IMG/VR virus record: IMGVR_UViG_3300046009_004355
Coordinates: 1-22,814 of that record
Strand: one strand, 5' to 3'
DNA: 22,814 bases
From: a virus
The notes under the pieces were generated by a model that made no database searches, was not told the origin of the DNA, and was given only the letters and a program-made list of their open reading frames with translations. Below, one piece after another: positions 1,006 to 17,721 of this stretch (position 1 is its first letter; the number at the start of each line of letters is the position of its first letter). The position numbers were made by a program, and so were the translations under genes.

Positions 1006-2919
1006 TTATTTACTCCACTTTTCCGTTATAGTTGTATCTGATTTCAATAACCCATTCTTTATCACTGCTTTCGCTGCTTTCTCCATCAACTCACTCATTG
1101 TGTCCTTCCATTCTTCTGCTAGATCTATTGGACAAATTGTATCTATCTGATCATGCACTGTCATAACAATCTTAATTGGTAGATTATTATCTTCGATATG
1201 TTGCATAATATAAACTAATGCTAACTTAGTCATATCTGCTGAGCTACCTTGTATTGGTGTGTTTTTGCTAGCTCTTTCAATACTTCCAAGTTCCATAAAG
1301 TTCTCTTTCTCACTATACATCTTTGGTGTCCAGTTATCAAACCATCTCTTGCGTCTAAATGGAGGGAATGTTTCTATGTAACCATTCTTCTTACCAAACT
1401 CACCTAAATTGTTAAGGAACTTCTCAATCTTAGGAAAAGCTTTAAAGTAATCTTTAATAAGATTCTTAGCTTCCTGTTGACTTGAGTTAATAGTCTCACT
1501 TAACTTCTTAGGTCCCATACCATAAGCTAATCCAAAATTAATTGTCTTAACTTGTGTTCTGAGTTTCTTATGCGCTTTACAATCACACTTTTCTTTCGTT
1601 TTCATATACGCACAATCAGGTTCAGCTGCTTCAATCCATTTAGTTCCAAATACTAACTCAGCACATACTGAATGCAAATCTTCATTGTTTTCTAACGCCT
1701 TTAAGAATACAGGGTCCTGTGATCCGTAAGCAATTACATTAAGTTCTTGAGAACTATAATCGCTAGATACAAAGACACTACCTTTAGGTGGAATAAAACA
1801 ATTACGATACATGTTATCTGCTGGTATTTGTTGCATATTAGGTTCACTAGAGGATACTCTGCCAGTGTCTAATATTTGTTGGAAACTAGTGTGGATCTTC
1901 CCATCCTCCTCTACATAATTGTAAAAGTTATCTCCGAATGCTGATACTAACTTAGACTTCTCCTTATACTTGATATAAACATCGATTAACTCGCTTTTAT
2001 ATCTGTAAGGATTAAGTTTCTTTCCGTTAACATCTTCAATCTCAGGGAAATAAATTTTAAATACTTTAAGTACTTGAGAGGGAGAATCCCAATTAATAAT
2101 TGTTCGCTTAACTTCTTCAGTTGCAAACAAATCTAATTGAGTTTCTCTGTACTTTACTAACTCTGGGAGATTGTAAGCATATTCTTGTAGAATTATCTCA
2201 GCTTTATTAGCTGCTTCTATATTAATATCTTTCAATTTATCCCATGCTTCTCTGTCTACTATTAATCCTTCATATTCTATCTCTGCAAAGACTCTAGTAG
2301 CCTTCATCTCTAACTTACAAACATTTGAGAGTCCTTGCAAATCAATAAAGTCTAACTGTTTTTCTCTAATATCTATTAGATACTCAACATCTTTAGCCCC
2401 GTAAATAATCTGATCAATAGTAAATGGAGTAGAGTGTGTGTCAGTAAACCTCCCTCGTATTTCTTTATTAAGAGTTTTGCCAGTATATCTTTCTACTACC
2501 TTACCAAGTCCATACCCATAATCTGTTTTCCCACAGTTTAGTATCTTTTCGGCTAAATACGTATCAAAAATGTTATCAGTACTAGCATTAAACTTCTTTT
2601 TAAGAAATTTGTAATCAAACTTTGCATTGTGAAATATCTTGACATAGTTTTCTGATTCTAAAAACAGTTTAATCAGTTGCATTTCTCTATCGGATATTGT
2701 ATTACGACAATCAATAATGAATTGTTCTTTCATATCCCCTATTTGCAACATTAATAACTTCTTAGAAACAAAACTAAATCCAGATGTTTCAGTGTCTACG
2801 CCATACACAACTTCACTGTTATTGTGTATATAATCAAACATGTCATTCCATTCACTACGTTTAATGTTTGGATGATCATATTCAATTAGCGAATCATTAA
2901 AATTAATTAGATGAATCAT
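1006..2919 (-). CDS. Family A DNA polymerase with 3'-5' exonuclease
   Basis: This is the phage replicative DNA polymerase (637 residues). The N-terminal third is a DEDDy proofreading exonuclease: VDTETSG (D42, E44), FHNAKFDYKF (N98, D102) and YGAKDVEYL (Y173, D177). The polymerase domain carries motif A SSDYSSQELNV (D387, E392), motif B KTINFGLAYGMG (K458, Y466) and motif C VMTVHDQID (H589, D590). There is no 5'-3' exonuclease domain, as in other phage A-family enzymes. Two oddities are visible. Motif C has Gln where most homologues have Glu, and a Cys/His insertion just before motif B (C436, C445, C447, H450) could bind zinc. Its start overlaps the upstream gene by 17 bases. Identification is secure from the motifs. 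Confidence 0.97.
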   Translation of the reverse strand: MIHLINFNDSLIEYDHPNIKRSEWNDMFDYIHNNSEVVYGVDTETSGFSFVSKKLLMLQIGDMKEQFIIDCRNTISDREMQLIKLFLESENYVKIFHNAKFDYKFLKKKFNASTDNIFDTYLAEKILNCGKTDYGYGLGKVVERYTGKTLNKEIRGRFTDTHSTPFTIDQIIYGAKDVEYLIDIREKQLDFIDLQGLSNVCKLEMKATRVFAEIEYEGLIVDREAWDKLKDINIEAANKAEIILQEYAYNLPELVKYRETQLDLFATEEVKRTIINWDSPSQVLKVFKIYFPEIEDVNGKKLNPYRYKSELIDVYIKYKEKSKLVSAFGDNFYNYVEEDGKIHTSFQQILDTGRVSSSEPNMQQIPADNMYRNCFIPPKGSVFVSSDYSSQELNVIAYGSQDPVFLKALENNEDLHSVCAELVFGTKWIEAAEPDCAYMKTKEKCDCKAHKKLRTQVKTINFGLAYGMGPKKLSETINSSQQEAKNLIKDYFKAFPKIEKFLNNLGEFGKKNGYIETFPPFRRKRWFDNWTPKMYSEKENFMELGSIERASKNTPIQGSSADMTKLALVYIMQHIEDNNLPIKIVMTVHDQIDTICPIDLAEEWKDTMSELMEKAAKAVIKNGLLKSDTTITEKWSK

Positions 2920-4358: not shown

Positions 4359-4763
4359 TTACTCTTTTACTTTGTTAATTTTAATTGTTCCCATTGTACC
4401 TGATGGTAATGCAGGAGATGAATAGACATTATCCCAATTATGATCTATTGCTAACTGATGCATAATAGATCGATAAATTTGATACGTATTCCCAATAAAC
4501 TCGGTACTATTATATCCATAGCTTTGATTGTCTGCAAAGTCTGGTAATAATGCACGTTTAGCTTGTCTTAAATGTTCTTCTGCATCAACTCTTCTTTTCA
4601 TATACTCTTCAAATGGTAAGTTTTTTATCATTTCTTGAACAGTATATTGTAATTGCCATTGACCACAAGCAAATCTGCAAATGTCTTCCATACAATATGC
4701 AATTAATCGCATTTGATCTTCTGTCAGTTCTATTGTATACTTACAATCTTTCTTCTCTGTCAT
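4359..4763 (-). CDS. Hypothetical protein
   Basis: A 134-residue protein starting MTEKKDCKYTIELTEDQMRL. The N-terminal half (TEDQMRLIAYCMEDICRFACGQW) reads as a helical, Cys-containing segment, and the middle has a Glu/Arg-rich helix. I recall similar proteins in other Bacteroidota phages without a known role. It overlaps the upstream gene by 23 bases and ends 2 bases before the next, so it belongs to the same operon. Confidence 0.78.
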   Translation of the reverse strand: MTEKKDCKYTIELTEDQMRLIAYCMEDICRFACGQWQLQYTVQEMIKNLPFEEYMKRRVDAEEHLRQAKRALLPDFADNQSYGYNSTEFIGNTYQIYRSIMHQLAIDHNWDNVYSSPALPSGTMGTIKINKVKE

Positions 4764-4953
4764 AGGAATCTTGTCTTGTTAGTTCATCTTTAATTAATGT
4801 ACACATTGCACGTGCTACTGATGTAGTAATGTTCTGTGCTTGAAAACTAAAAAATGGTTTTTTAGTTTGTTCTGCAATTGTAGTTAGATTAAACAATTGC
4901 TCTGTTGCTTGTGGGTCTTCTGATATTTCTTTAACCCATTTCATTTTACTCAT
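4741..4953 (-). CDS. Hypothetical protein, first gene of the middle early operon
   Basis: A 70-residue protein starting MSKMKWVKEISEDPQATEQL with no recognisable motif. It is the first gene after a 213-base untranslated stretch full of hairpins (4954-5166), so its expression may depend on readthrough of those structures. A second ATG lies two codons in. Function is unknown. Confidence 0.7.
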   Translation of the reverse strand: MSKMKWVKEISEDPQATEQLFNLTTIAEQTKKPFFSFQAQNITTSVARAMCTLIKDELTRQDSYDREERL

Positions 4954-5022
4954 AATTATTTGTTTTTAATTGTTAGCGTAACTATTATGACCGTACCTAT
5001 TATTTAGTACGAAATAACAAGA

Positions 5023-5071
5023 ACACATAACAACTCCTGTCCATTCATCAGGAGTGTTATTTGTTATGTGT
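5023..5071 (-). promoter_or_regulatory. Long hairpin in untranslated leader
   Basis: A 10-bp stem (ACACATAACA with TGTTATGTGT) and a 7-bp stem (ACTCCTG with CAGGAGT), separated by a 6-base bulge, enclose a 9-base loop. On the minus strand it is followed by TCTTGTTATTTCG. It could be a terminator or attenuator between the 199-residue protein gene and the next operon. The loop region is perfectly complementary over 8 bases to 5097-5104, so an alternative fold is possible. Confidence 0.55.
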
Positions 5072-5109
5072 CTTAAACCTTTTGTTATGTTATGTGTGAA
5101 TGGAATAGT

Positions 5110-5155
5110 TCCCCTGCAAGGTTTCGCTCCTTGCTTTGAACTCAGTTACAGGGGA
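5110..5155 (-). terminator. Two-tier hairpin just after the 199-residue protein gene
   Basis: The outer stem TCCCCTG with CAGGGGA (7 bp) encloses an inner 5-bp hairpin CAAGG with CCTTG and a 7-base loop. It starts about 12 bases after the stop codon at 5167. There is no clear T run after it on the minus strand, so it may protect a 3' end or be processed instead of acting as a classic terminator. Confidence 0.45.
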
Positions 5156-5166
5156 TGGAAGTGTTA

Positions 5167-5766
5167 TTAGGAAAACAACTCTCCAGTGTTTACATCAACA
5201 CCAGCTGGAATACCAGAAGTAGCTTTAACAGCAGCATCTGGTTCTAGCATAACATGGTTTGCATTATCGAACACGATTCTTGTGTTAGCGAAAATGTACA
5301 TGCCTTTGTGCGTGATGAATGCACCATCTTTACCTCTACGTTTAGCAGAAGTTTGTAGATTTTGAGCTTGCCAATCAGTAGGCTCAATAGTTTCTACAAT
5401 CTCAACCTTAAGTTGATGATCTGTTCCATTGATAGTAGCAACAGGATTTAGAACATTAAGTTCTAAGACCTCACGTCCCATACCATCTACAGACCAGTTA
5501 GCAGAGTCAGATAAATCTAACCCTAGAATAGCAGACGCATCTTTTGCCTCAGCAGTCAACCAAGCACGACGTGCCTTGTTACCTGTGTTGAAACGATCAT
5601 CTGATTTGTTGAATAATCCAAGAGGATTTACTGATGCAGTTGATGTTCTGATCAACTCAGCGAACTCTAATTGAATTTTGTTGCCTGACACTTTCCTAGC
5701 AGACAAAAGCAAGGTTTGATTCTCTTGGATCATGTCCAAAGAACCACTGTTAATTGTGTTTTTCAT
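5167..5766 (-). CDS. Early protein of unknown function, possibly ssDNA-binding
   Basis: A 199-residue protein starting MKNTINSGSLDMIQENQTL. It looks mostly beta-rich (QLKVEIVETIEPTDW, MYIFANTRIVFDNANHVML), with a basic patch TSAKRRGKDG and a short C-terminal tail DVNTGELFS. Position in the replication arm, size and beta content would suit a phage single-stranded DNA-binding protein, but I see no diagnostic motif and the tail is only weakly acidic. It stands alone between strong hairpins, and its codons are richer in C-ending forms than its neighbours, which suggests high expression. I hold the ssDNA-binding idea at perhaps one in four. Confidence 0.8.
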   Translation of the reverse strand: MKNTINSGSLDMIQENQTLLLSARKVSGNKIQLEFAELIRTSTASVNPLGLFNKSDDRFNTGNKARRAWLTAEAKDASAILGLDLSDSANWSVDGMGREVLELNVLNPVATINGTDHQLKVEIVETIEPTDWQAQNLQTSAKRRGKDGAFITHKGMYIFANTRIVFDNANHVMLEPDAAVKATSGIPAGVDVNTGELFS

Positions 5767-10992: not shown

Positions 10993-11301
10993 ATGTCAAA
11001 TTTAATCAATTTTAATCCAACTCGTGATTGGGTTGTGGTTCCAGATCCATCAGTAAAAGAAACTGACGGAGGTATTTTATTATCAGAAGGTGCTGCTATG
11101 GCAGCTAAAAAACCAACATCTACAATTGTTGCCGCAGGCCCACAATGTACTCAAGTTAAAGTAGGAGATGAGATTCTAGTTCATCCAACAGCTGAAGGTT
11201 TTTTCTTTGAAGTTGATGGAAAGAAATATGCAGCTATTAACGAGTTCATGGTACTTGGTGTTATTCCATCCAAAGCTATCCAAGGAACTACTAATCTGTA
11301 A
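10993..11301 (+). CDS. GroES-like co-chaperonin (Cpn10)
   Basis: A 102-residue protein with the GroES fold pattern: an N-terminal strand PTRDWVVVPDPS, a mobile loop TDGGILLSEGAAMAAKKP carrying the hydrophobic GroEL-contact tripeptide ILL, then STIVAAGPQ, KVGDEILVHP and a C-terminal strand NEFMVLGVI. Phage co-chaperonins such as T4 gp31 replace GroES on host GroEL to fold the major capsid protein. Here the gene lies in the late arm with its own promoter, which fits that use. No GroEL partner is seen in the window, so it must act with the host chaperonin. Confidence 0.88.
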   Translation: MSNLINFNPTRDWVVVPDPSVKETDGGILLSEGAAMAAKKPTSTIVAAGPQCTQVKVGDEILVHPTAEGFFFEVDGKKYAAINEFMVLGVIPSKAIQGTTNL

Positions 11302-15025: not shown

Positions 15026-17236
15026 ATGTACGGACAAGCCCATATACCTAAACAAAGAGTTCCATTAAGTCAGAAAGATGAGAAGTGGAAAAAAGATTGC
15101 GTAGATGCATTTATTAATTTATCTAAATTTGGTATCAGTGAGCGTCGTGCATATTTGCGATCTTTGTATGACTACTATAATGGTGTAATAGATGAAGAAG
15201 ACTATAACTATGTACTTAAACCTTACGGAAAAACTAGAAAGAATTTCCCAACTAAGCTACGAAACTACCCAATCATTAAACCCATTATTGATTTACTTCT
15301 TGGAGAGAAATCTAAGCGTCCTTTAGAGTATACAGTAACTGTACAAAATGCTGATGCTATTAGTCAGAAAGAAGAGCAACTACAAAACTTGCTTTTAAAT
15401 AACATTCGTACTCAATTCCTAAATGCTCTTATTCAACAAGGACAAGTTGAAGGAGAACAACAAGAAGTTCCGCTTCCTAAGCAAATTCAAGAAGAATTCA
15501 ATAGATCTTATGTAGATTCTAGAGCAATTAGAGGACAACATGCGTTGAATTATATTATGAATCAACAAGAAATTTATGATAAGTTTCAAAAGCAGTTTTT
15601 TCATTTCTTAATTGCAGGGGAGTGTTACTCACACAAAGGAGTTAGACGTAACGAACCATTTTATGAAGTCATTAATCCACTAGATGTTGACTTTGATAAA
15701 GACCCAGATATTGATTTTGTAGAAGATGGAGATTGGGCAATCATTAGAAAATTTTCTCATGCCTCTACTATAGTTGATGCTTATGGAGAGTTCTTAACTG
15801 CTGAACAAATTTTAGAATTAGAATCTCCTACTCATACATCTGCAGAAGCTTATCTTTTGTATCGTGCAGAAGCATCTGGAGCTGATGATAATATCTATCG
15901 TAACAGATTGATAGAAATTGTAACGGTGTATTGGAAGTCAAGAAAAAGAATTGGGTTTTTAAATTATATAGATCCCAATACGGGAACTCAAGAGGTTAAA
16001 GAAGTTGATGAAACTTTTAAGTTAACTGCTGAGATGAAACAAGAGATGGGAGCAACTTTAGAGTGGGAGTGGGTTAATGAAGTATGGGAAGGAATTAGAA
16101 TTGATAGAAGATTCTATATTAAAATGAATCCATTAGCAATTCAAAGAACTAGTCTAGATAACCCATCAATTTGTAAACTACCAATTAACGGAAGAAAATA
16201 TTCTGATATTAATTCTCAACCTATCTCTTTAGTTAGTCTTGGAATTCCTTATCAGCTAAATTACAATATTTACAAGTACCGCATGGAGTTAGCAATAGCC
16301 AGGTCTAAGGATATTGTTGCTCAATTCGATATTAATATGATCCCTAAAAATTGGGACATGGATAAGTTTATGTACTATGTAGAGGGTACAGGTATTGCTT
16401 GGGTAGACTATAACAAAGAGGGAATACAACTATCCCCCCAGCACCAATCTGTGTTGGATATGTCAATTAAGACGATCTCACAATATCTTACCCTCTTAGA
16501 ATCGATAATGGTTGAGTGGGAAAAATTGAGTGGTGTTAATAGACAACGCCAAGGTTCCGTTGGAATGTATGAAGGTAAAGGAACATCACAACAAGCCATT
16601 GTCCAATCTTCTCATATAACAGAGGATATATTTAGAAAGTTCTCAAACTTTGAGCAACGTGAATTGCAAGGATTAATCGACTACTCTAAAGTGGCTTGGA
16701 TTAACGGCAAGAAAGGAATGTTTGTAATGCCAGACAACACATTAGCTGAATTGGATGTTGAAGGATTAGGACACTTAGAATCTGAATATGGAATCTTTGT
16801 CTCTGATGCTGGTAAAGATGTAGAGAAACTTCAAGCTATTAGAGGATTTGCACAAGCAGCTGTACAGAATGGTCTTCCAATGTCAGCAGCTATTTCAATC
16901 TTTGAAAGCGATAGTTTCCCACAAATTAAAGATAAAATTAGACAAGCTGAGAAAGCTCAAGAAGAATTGCAAAAAGCGCAACAAGATGCTCAAGCCCAAC
17001 AAGGACAGCAACAAATGCAAATTCAACAAGCTCAAATTGAGTCTCAACAATTGGATAAAGAAAAAGATCGTCAATTACAAATTGAACTTGCTCTTATTGC
17101 AGCTGAAGGTGATGATAAAAAGAATTCTGCATCATTGGAAAAAATGATGAAAGACTTTGAAATTAAACAAAAGCAATTAGAACTTAAAGAGCAAGAAATT
17201 AATAATAAACTTATTCAAAATAATACCCCAGAATAA
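15026..17236 (+). CDS. Portal protein
   Basis: A 736-residue protein directly after the large terminase. The N-terminal part (about residues 1-110) carries RAYLRSLYDYYNGVIDEEDY and KLRNYPIIKPIIDLLLGEKS, patterns I associate with large portal proteins of Bacteroidota phages. The middle is a mixed fold ending in a long helical stem (ISQYLTLLESIMVEWEKLSG). The last 100 residues are Gln/Ala/Lys-rich and coiled-coil-like, probably the portal barrel or a disordered tail inside the capsid. The portal is the dodecameric ring through which DNA is packaged and ejected. Its TAA overlaps the next ATG by 1 base. The call is supported by position and size. Confidence 0.88.
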   Translation: MYGQAHIPKQRVPLSQKDEKWKKDCVDAFINLSKFGISERRAYLRSLYDYYNGVIDEEDYNYVLKPYGKTRKNFPTKLRNYPIIKPIIDLLLGEKSKRPLEYTVTVQNADAISQKEEQLQNLLLNNIRTQFLNALIQQGQVEGEQQEVPLPKQIQEEFNRSYVDSRAIRGQHALNYIMNQQEIYDKFQKQFFHFLIAGECYSHKGVRRNEPFYEVINPLDVDFDKDPDIDFVEDGDWAIIRKFSHASTIVDAYGEFLTAEQILELESPTHTSAEAYLLYRAEASGADDNIYRNRLIEIVTVYWKSRKRIGFLNYIDPNTGTQEVKEVDETFKLTAEMKQEMGATLEWEWVNEVWEGIRIDRRFYIKMNPLAIQRTSLDNPSICKLPINGRKYSDINSQPISLVSLGIPYQLNYNIYKYRMELAIARSKDIVAQFDINMIPKNWDMDKFMYYVEGTGIAWVDYNKEGIQLSPQHQSVLDMSIKTISQYLTLLESIMVEWEKLSGVNRQRQGSVGMYEGKGTSQQAIVQSSHITEDIFRKFSNFEQRELQGLIDYSKVAWINGKKGMFVMPDNTLAELDVEGLGHLESEYGIFVSDAGKDVEKLQAIRGFAQAAVQNGLPMSAAISIFESDSFPQIKDKIRQAEKAQEELQKAQQDAQAQQGQQQMQIQQAQIESQQLDKEKDRQLQIELALIAAEGDDKKNSASLEKMMKDFEIKQKQLELKEQEINNKLIQNNTPE

Positions 17237-17721
17237 TGGCAAAAGATCTATCAAAATATCTAACTCCTTTAGATAGTTTAGAAAAGAATGGAACCGAAGT
17301 AATTAAAGACTTAGAAGCAGGTTTCCGTGGGTCAGGTAGATTAGATAACTTGGTAGCAGAGTTAGCATTAAGCATGTTAGAAGTTGCTAATAAAATCCAT
17401 CTTCTTCATTGGGGAATGACTGGTCAAGGTTCTTATGCTGCTCATCAAACTCTTGGTGACTTATATGACAGTCTTAGAAATAGAGCAGATGAAGTTGTAG
17501 AAAATTACCAAGGTATTGCAGAAACATTGTTGACATTTATGGATTTTAATGTTAGTCCTAAATTTAAAGATGTAACTAATTGTATGACTGCTTTAGATAC
17601 ACTTAAAAATAAAGTTAATGATTTACAAAAAGAAAGTAAATTTTCTGAATTCAATAACTTACTAGATGAGATTAAAGCAGATATTAATAAAGCTAAGTAC
17701 AAACTTACTTTCTTGAAGTAA
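17236..17721 (+). CDS. Dps/ferritin-like protein
   Basis: A 161-residue four-helix-bundle-like protein. Residues 55-92 read HLLHWGMTGQGSYAAHQ, then GDLYDSLRNRADEVVEN, which is the Dps signature HW-x-x-x-G-x-x-(F/Y)-x-x-x-H ... D-E-x-x-E. H58, H70, D85 and E89 keep the spacings 12, 15 and 4 of the Dps ferroxidase ligands (H31, H43, D58, E62 of E. coli-type numbering in Listeria Dps). It is coupled to the portal upstream and to a virion-type gene downstream, so it is probably made late. It may protect packaged DNA from iron-driven oxidation, or be a virion or assembly component that has lost catalysis. Confidence 0.75.
   Translation: MAKDLSKYLTPLDSLEKNGTEVIKDLEAGFRGSGRLDNLVAELALSMLEVANKIHLLHWGMTGQGSYAAHQTLGDLYDSLRNRADEVVENYQGIAETLLTFMDFNVSPKFKDVTNCMTALDTLKNKVNDLQKESKFSEFNNLLDEIKADINKAKYKLTFLK

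What the first reader, a model, noticed from the sequence alone, without database searches (positions are those of the whole stretch)
4954..5155. Switch-like hairpin cluster with a loop complementary to the upstream linker
The 213-base gap between the 199-residue gene and the next operon contains two strong hairpins. The loop of the larger (5040-5047 TCCATTCA) is perfectly complementary to 5097-5104 (TGAATGGA), and the 10-base arm TGTTATGTGT is present twice (5062-5071, 5088-5097). The RNA can therefore form alternative or pseudoknotted structures, as in attenuators.
Basis: seen in the sequence. Interest (0 to 1): 0.5.

Follow-up and report, generated by a model that had tools for sequence, protein, structure and literature searches.

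The report
tRNA-like helix plus conserved pseudoknot
Between two genes of an uncultured crAss-like phage lies a folded RNA made of a stunted, anticodon-less tRNA-like helix and a pseudoknot kept by evolution, probably a cutting or stabilising mark in the message rather than an on/off switch.

Summary
The sequence features are real: both hairpins, the 8-nt loop complement and the repeated 10-nt arm lie where stated. Relatives split the interpretation. The loop-to-upstream pairing is a conserved pseudoknot: in 14 loci with different sequences each loop pairs best with its own upstream strand (mean 6.36 versus 4.47 Watson-Crick pairs; 0 of 200,000 permutations as good). The repeated arm, the basis of the switch idea, occurs only in this phage. 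The second hairpin is a 12-bp helix with the topology of a tRNA acceptor stem plus T arm. It is 47-48 of 48 identical where the upstream gene is 67-81% identical. It sits where relatives carry full-size tRNA-like RNAs, most without a readable anticodon. Such RNAs recur between genes across this phage group, and two occur in cultured crAss001 beside a TROVE (Ro60-like) gene. I think the element most likely punctuates the transcript, the tRNA-like part serving as an RNase P-type processing site and the pseudoknotted hairpin guarding an RNA end. The function is inferred. Termination (three relatives have a U-tract after the corresponding hairpin) and a trans-acting tRNA mimic remain open.

The parts
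5110..5155 (-). anticodon-less tRNA-like minihelix: 7-bp acceptor-like stem 5155-5149/5116-5110, 15-nt insert 5148-5134, 5-bp T-arm-like hairpin 5133-5129/5121-5117 with loop AGCGAAA 5128-5122; followed by ACTA (5109-5106; ACCA in L003/L004)
   Evidence: compensatory acceptor changes in L045
5097..5104 (-). pseudoknot strand TCCATTCA, 5' partner of the hairpin loop
5023..5071 (-). bulged hairpin: outer stem 5071-5062/5032-5023, 5'-side A-rich bulge 5061-5055, inner stem 5054-5049/5039-5034, loop 5048-5040
5040..5047 (-). loop strand TGAATGGA, 3' partner of the pseudoknot
5088..5097 (-). second copy of the outer arm; not conserved
5167..5766 (-). upstream 199-aa gene, no Pfam or PHROG family; marks the slot in relatives
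4741..4953 (-). downstream small gene (70 aa) that starts after the element; coordinates read from the sequence
1006..2919 (-). family A DNA polymerase further downstream in the same block

Best explanation
The minus-strand transcript carries a two-module structured RNA between the 199-aa gene and the small gene/DNA polymerase block. Module 1 is a reduced tRNA-like structure: a 12-bp acceptor-plus-T-arm helix with the anticodon arm gone. Module 2 is a bulged hairpin whose loop pairs with the strand just after module 1, forming a pseudoknot. Most likely mechanism: module 1 is recognised by the host tRNA maturation enzymes, above all RNase P, and marks a cut that separates the two messages (punctuation); module 2 shields or sets the end of the downstream or released RNA. 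Shown here: structures, covariation, conserved slot. Inferred: recognition, cleavage, end protection.
For: Pseudoknot covariation in 14 loci. Minihelix 47-48 of 48 identical (L002, L003, L008, L042) where the genes are 67-81% identical at DNA level. The strict minihelix descriptor gives 14 hits in 2.08 Mb, 7 of them in this slot. The slot holds a tRNA-like structure by descriptor in 24 of 52 readable loci (17 with TTCRA T loops, 7 more of the minihelix kind), or 26 of 52 with L051 (relaxed rule) and the ordinary tRNA-Thr of L018. Rfam tRNA scores 52-58 bits in 8 slot loci of 15 scanned, besides L018, while ARAGORN finds no three-base anticodon in 7 of 9 such slots and draws poor anticodon stems in the other two. 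In 16 sequence classes 191 of 192 acceptor/T-stem cells pair and 10 of 12 pairs show two or more Watson-Crick types (rows were picked by pairing, so partly circular). Similar elements recur between genes: 57 descriptor hits versus about 1.6 expected, 30 of them not ordinary tRNAs. What is kept (12-bp acceptor/T domain) is what bacterial RNase P measures, and phage phi80 M3 RNA and T4 gene 32 mRNA are known RNase P substrates (passages).
Against: The window's own minihelix has no TTCRA T loop, no clear D arm, and is not found by Rfam or ARAGORN. 26 of 52 slots have no such structure, several with a plain hairpin instead. Three relatives carry a U-tract after the hairpin, which speaks for termination there. 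Loci L025, L046-L048, L050 and L051 have the tRNA-like part but no room for the pseudoknot hairpin, so the modules are separable. No transcript or cleavage data exist here.
Confidence: 0.42

Rival explanations
1. The tRNA-like module is a trans-acting small RNA (tRNA mimic, decoy against tRNA-directed defence, or partner of a Ro60-like protein), cut out of the transcript to act elsewhere.
For: Anticodon arm replaced by varied inserts while the tRNA elbow is kept; cultured crAss001 has two such RNAs beside a TROVE-domain gene, a gene the Crassvirales review lists as early (passage).
Against: No TROVE domain in 20 records including the window; no YrlA above the cut-off in 25. The window's version is only about 46 nt.
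Confidence: 0.23
2. The larger hairpin is a transcription terminator or attenuator, with the pseudoknot tuning read-through into the polymerase block.
For: Corresponding hairpins in L018, L023 and L045 are followed by 8 T of 8; 6 of 8 in L014 and L016; other loci have terminator-like hairpins in the slot.
Against: Window tail 5 T of 8, and 0-2 T in L003, L006, L008, L012, L035; no terminator-like site at the hairpin; the alternative arm is not conserved; the pseudoknot does not disrupt the hairpin.
Confidence: 0.18
3. A decayed tRNA gene that lingers in a spacer, plus an unrelated stable hairpin.
For: L018 has an ordinary tRNA-Thr in the slot; anticodon arms are degenerate.
Against: The 48-nt block stays 47-48 of 48 identical over 19-33% gene divergence and paired strands change together.
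Confidence: 0.1
4. A leader that controls translation of the small gene, bound by a phage protein, in the way T4 gp32 binds a pseudoknot on its own message (recalled).
For: Pseudoknot lies before the small gene in the window and in tRNA-like loci such as L007, L009, L010, L012, L014-L016 and L035.
Against: A small gene also follows in loci without the pseudoknot (L025, L046-L048); the 199-aa protein has no family or fold match.
Confidence: 0.07

Closest known systems
RNase P model substrate (acceptor stem plus T arm) and phage phi80 M3 RNA
   Same: 12-bp stacked acceptor/T helix; phage transcript; 3' ACCA in L003/L004
   Different: cleavage not tested; non-TTCRA loop in the window; window 3' end is ACTA
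tRNA (RF00005)
   Same: relatives in the same slot score 52-58 bits
   Different: no readable anticodon in most; window copy not detected at all
Bacterial Y RNAs with a tRNA-like module (YrlA, RF02553)
   Same: tRNA mimicry without decoding (recalled; only a search listing seen); TROVE neighbour in crAss001
   Different: no TROVE gene and no match above the cut-off in the window lineage
T4 gene 32 message
   Same: phage replication-block message with RNA structure, an RNase P substrate (passage)
   Different: here the element follows the 199-aa gene, whose function is unknown

Membership tests
tRNA | covariance-model match | tested here: not met
   window: no match at gathering score and none at E<=10; relatives met in 8 slot loci
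tRNA | three-base anticodon in a 7-nt loop | tested here: not met
   window helix has no anticodon arm; 7 of 9 relatives none, two with poor arms
RNase P substrate | about 12-bp acceptor/T-like helix | tested here: met
   7+5 bp, all Watson-Crick
RNase P substrate | 3' RCCA | tested here: inconclusive
   ACTA in window, ACCA in L003/L004, ACAA in L045
RNase P substrate | cleavage at the helix base | not testable with these tools
   needs biochemistry
Y RNA (YrlA) | YrlA model match and TROVE gene | tested here: not met
   0 of 25 over the cut-off; TROVE 0 of 20 records, which are fragments
tmRNA | tRNA halves around a tag reading frame | tested here: not met
   ARAGORN found none in the window
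Intrinsic terminator/attenuator | hairpin directly followed by a U-run | tested here: inconclusive
   window not called, tail 5 T of 8; three relatives 8 of 8
Attenuator with alternative arm | conserved competing arm | tested here: not met
   present only in the window of 13 loci

The most novel reading that the evidence does not exclude
Crassvirales use a class of decoding-dead tRNA-like RNAs, some shrunk to a bare acceptor/T helix, as gene punctuation processed by the host tRNA machinery, here coupled to a conserved pseudoknot.
Probability: 0.35. Interest if true: 0.78.

Novelty: new variant of a known kind. Interest (0 to 1): 0.6.

Why it matters
crAss-like phages are among the commonest gut viruses, and how they process their long transcripts is little known. 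A tRNA-like mark without an anticodon would explain many 'undetermined' tRNAs in these genomes, and it can be tested directly in cultured crAss001, which has two such elements in an unannotated gap next to its TROVE gene.

Tried and rejected
Rfam search of the gap: nothing credible. Hammerhead ribozyme: CTGATGA and GAAA motifs are present but I saw no matching stem order (by eye). Attenuator with competing arms: not conserved. Y RNA for the window lineage: not supported. Identity of the 199-aa protein: no Pfam or PHROG family; AlphaFold model weak (mean pLDDT 64.5) and no useful fold match, so I do not call it a single-strand binding protein. No relatives of that protein among 50,697 phage records and one weak one in GTDB. 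Searches for a printed description of such elements found none in the held library (listings, plus passages of four papers); subscription papers are mostly not held.

Limits: the pseudoknot set was hand-picked. 14 loci where I could see the hairpin were used; near-duplicates or close kin L001, L004, L005, L011, L013, L042 were left out. L018 showed no such pairing by eye; L023 and L045 were not scored for it; the six loci L025, L046-L048, L050, L051 have no room for it. With a fixed 60-nt upstream rule 3 of 14 loci (L006, L010, L015) pair only 5 bp, and 5 of 14 have shuffle p above 0.05 on their own; for L012 the rule picked a strand inside the T arm. Slot counts include near-identical pairs; of 55 loci read, three were cut off (L020, L028, L029), and one T-loop hit (L062) lies inside the small gene and was not counted. 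Three of the 30 non-ordinary tRNA-like hits lie in coding frames and are probably chance; the ordinary/non-ordinary split is a crude rule.

Full report
Setting. The window is a 22,814-base fragment of a virus record. Its capsid protein matches the Pfam Crassvirus major capsid family, and it has a family A DNA polymerase, terminase and portal. Capsid identity to catalogued crAss-like phages is only about 22-39% in the rows listed, so this is an environmental branch. The finding lies in a 213-nt gap on the minus strand, between a 199-aa gene (5167-5766) and a small gene that starts at 4953.

Observation. Relatives show that they are two modules with different histories.

Relatives. Searches with the 199-aa protein gave 36 loci and then 45 with an alignment, many shared; a DNA pattern added L042. 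I read up to 450 nt after the stop codon of the gene in 55 of these loci, and the same region of L042.

Module 2, the pseudoknot. In the window the loop TGAATGGA pairs with TCCATTCA located 5 nt after module 1. L002 has CCTATTCT with AGAATAGG, L008 TTCCATT with AATGGAA, L009 ATACCTC with GAGGTAT, L007/L014/L016 ATCCTC with GAGGAT, L035 AAACCC with GGGTTT, L017 CCGTGCA with TGCACGG. A swap test over 14 hand-picked loci with Watson-Crick pairs only and a fixed 60-nt upstream stretch gave a cognate mean of 6.36 and a non-cognate mean of 4.47; no permutation of 200,000 reached the cognate sum, also in a reduced set of 10. Single loci are weaker: 5 of 14 have shuffle p above 0.05. The architecture is shared: outer stem, one-sided 5' bulge in most, inner stem, 8-11-nt loop in all but L017. 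The 10-nt arm repeat is private to the window among 13 loci.

Module 1, the tRNA-like helix. The block TCCCCTG-15 nt-CAAGG-AGCGAAA-CCTTG-CAGGGGA is, with two following bases, 47-48 of 48 identical in L002, L003, L008 and L042, while the adjoining gene is 81, 67, 69 and 68% identical (L042 only in part); the flanks differ on both sides. It was found in 7 contigs of the viral collection, by two patterns. L045 keeps the same topology with compensated acceptor pairs (ACTTCTG/CAGAAGT). In the same slot, right after the stop codon or after a plain hairpin, other relatives have full tRNA-like structures: acceptor, T arm with TTCGAAT-type loop and often a D arm, but a long, odd or missing anticodon arm. 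L023 links the two kinds: an anticodon-less 48-nt helix with a true T loop. By descriptor 24 of 52 readable slots have one kind or the other. The strict minihelix descriptor hit 14 times in 2.08 Mb, half of them in the slot, so a chance hit in this 213-nt gap is unlikely (about 1 in 1,000).

Wider pattern. In 27 records (2.12 Mb counting both strands) a stricter descriptor with a TTCRA loop found 57 hits; 8 occurred in 10.6 Mb of shuffled sequence. By a crude rule 27 look like ordinary tRNAs and 30 do not; 3 of the 30 lie in coding frames. Several records have two or three non-ordinary elements, on both sides of the 199-aa gene (L025, L047, L050). A series with acceptor AGTCAGG/CCTGACT recurs in several records. 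Control stretches of cr108_1, crAss002, Fpv1 and an Azobacteroides phage gave none; crAss001 gave two long-insert elements in an unannotated gap and one tRNA with a four-base anticodon. The crAss001 pair lies after a gene called RNA-binding there and TROVE-domain in its relatives, and is kept in related phages in whole or part.

Mechanism. The part that all versions keep, 12 bp of stacked acceptor and T stem, is the length RNase P measures, and hairpins of just this kind are cut in vitro; phage M3 RNA and T4 gene 32 mRNA are natural phage examples (passages of PMC11143913 and PMC10731613). The element lies between genes, in the sense direction. I therefore favour transcript punctuation, with the pseudoknot protecting an end. 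Against this stand the altered T loop in the window, the many slots without the element, and the U-tract in L018, L023 and L045, which suggests that the hairpin may be a terminator in some members. No step of the mechanism was tested.

Verdict. This is a new variant of a known kind of RNA, tRNA-like structures, with a testable counterpart in a cultured phage.

Noticed in passing
L125 41205-41342 and 41455-41597 (crAss001 gap 95,965-96,869): Two tRNA-like RNAs with about 110-nt inserts, sharing a GAGTTACTTCAA motif, follow a TROVE (Ro60-like) gene; both kept in PhiCrAssBcn20, one in cr106_1 (after TROVE) and the other in cr112_1 (after an HNH gene). Candidate phage Y-RNA analogues.
   Followed up: partly
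G001, G003, G006, G018, G020, G030, G033: A second recurrent tRNA-like element with acceptor AGTCAGG/CCTGACT and a variable central arm, elsewhere in these genomes.
   Followed up: partly
L044 12938-13006: A phage nearly identical to the window carries a further tRNA-like element that would lie just beyond the window's left end.
   Followed up: no
L042 1-640: Mosaic: downstream of the minihelix it is 97% identical to L008, while the gene part is only 76% identical to L008 and 68% to the window; possible recombination joint at the minihelix.
   Followed up: partly
L045 3714-3768: The opposite strand also fits the minihelix descriptor, using a different acceptor-like pairing; possible alternative structure.
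   Followed up: no
L009 3483-3698: Group I intron match (RF00028) downstream of the slot.
   Followed up: no
window 10993-11301 and 17236-17721: Phage-encoded GroES-like co-chaperonin and a Dps-like/DUF5856 protein.
   Followed up: no
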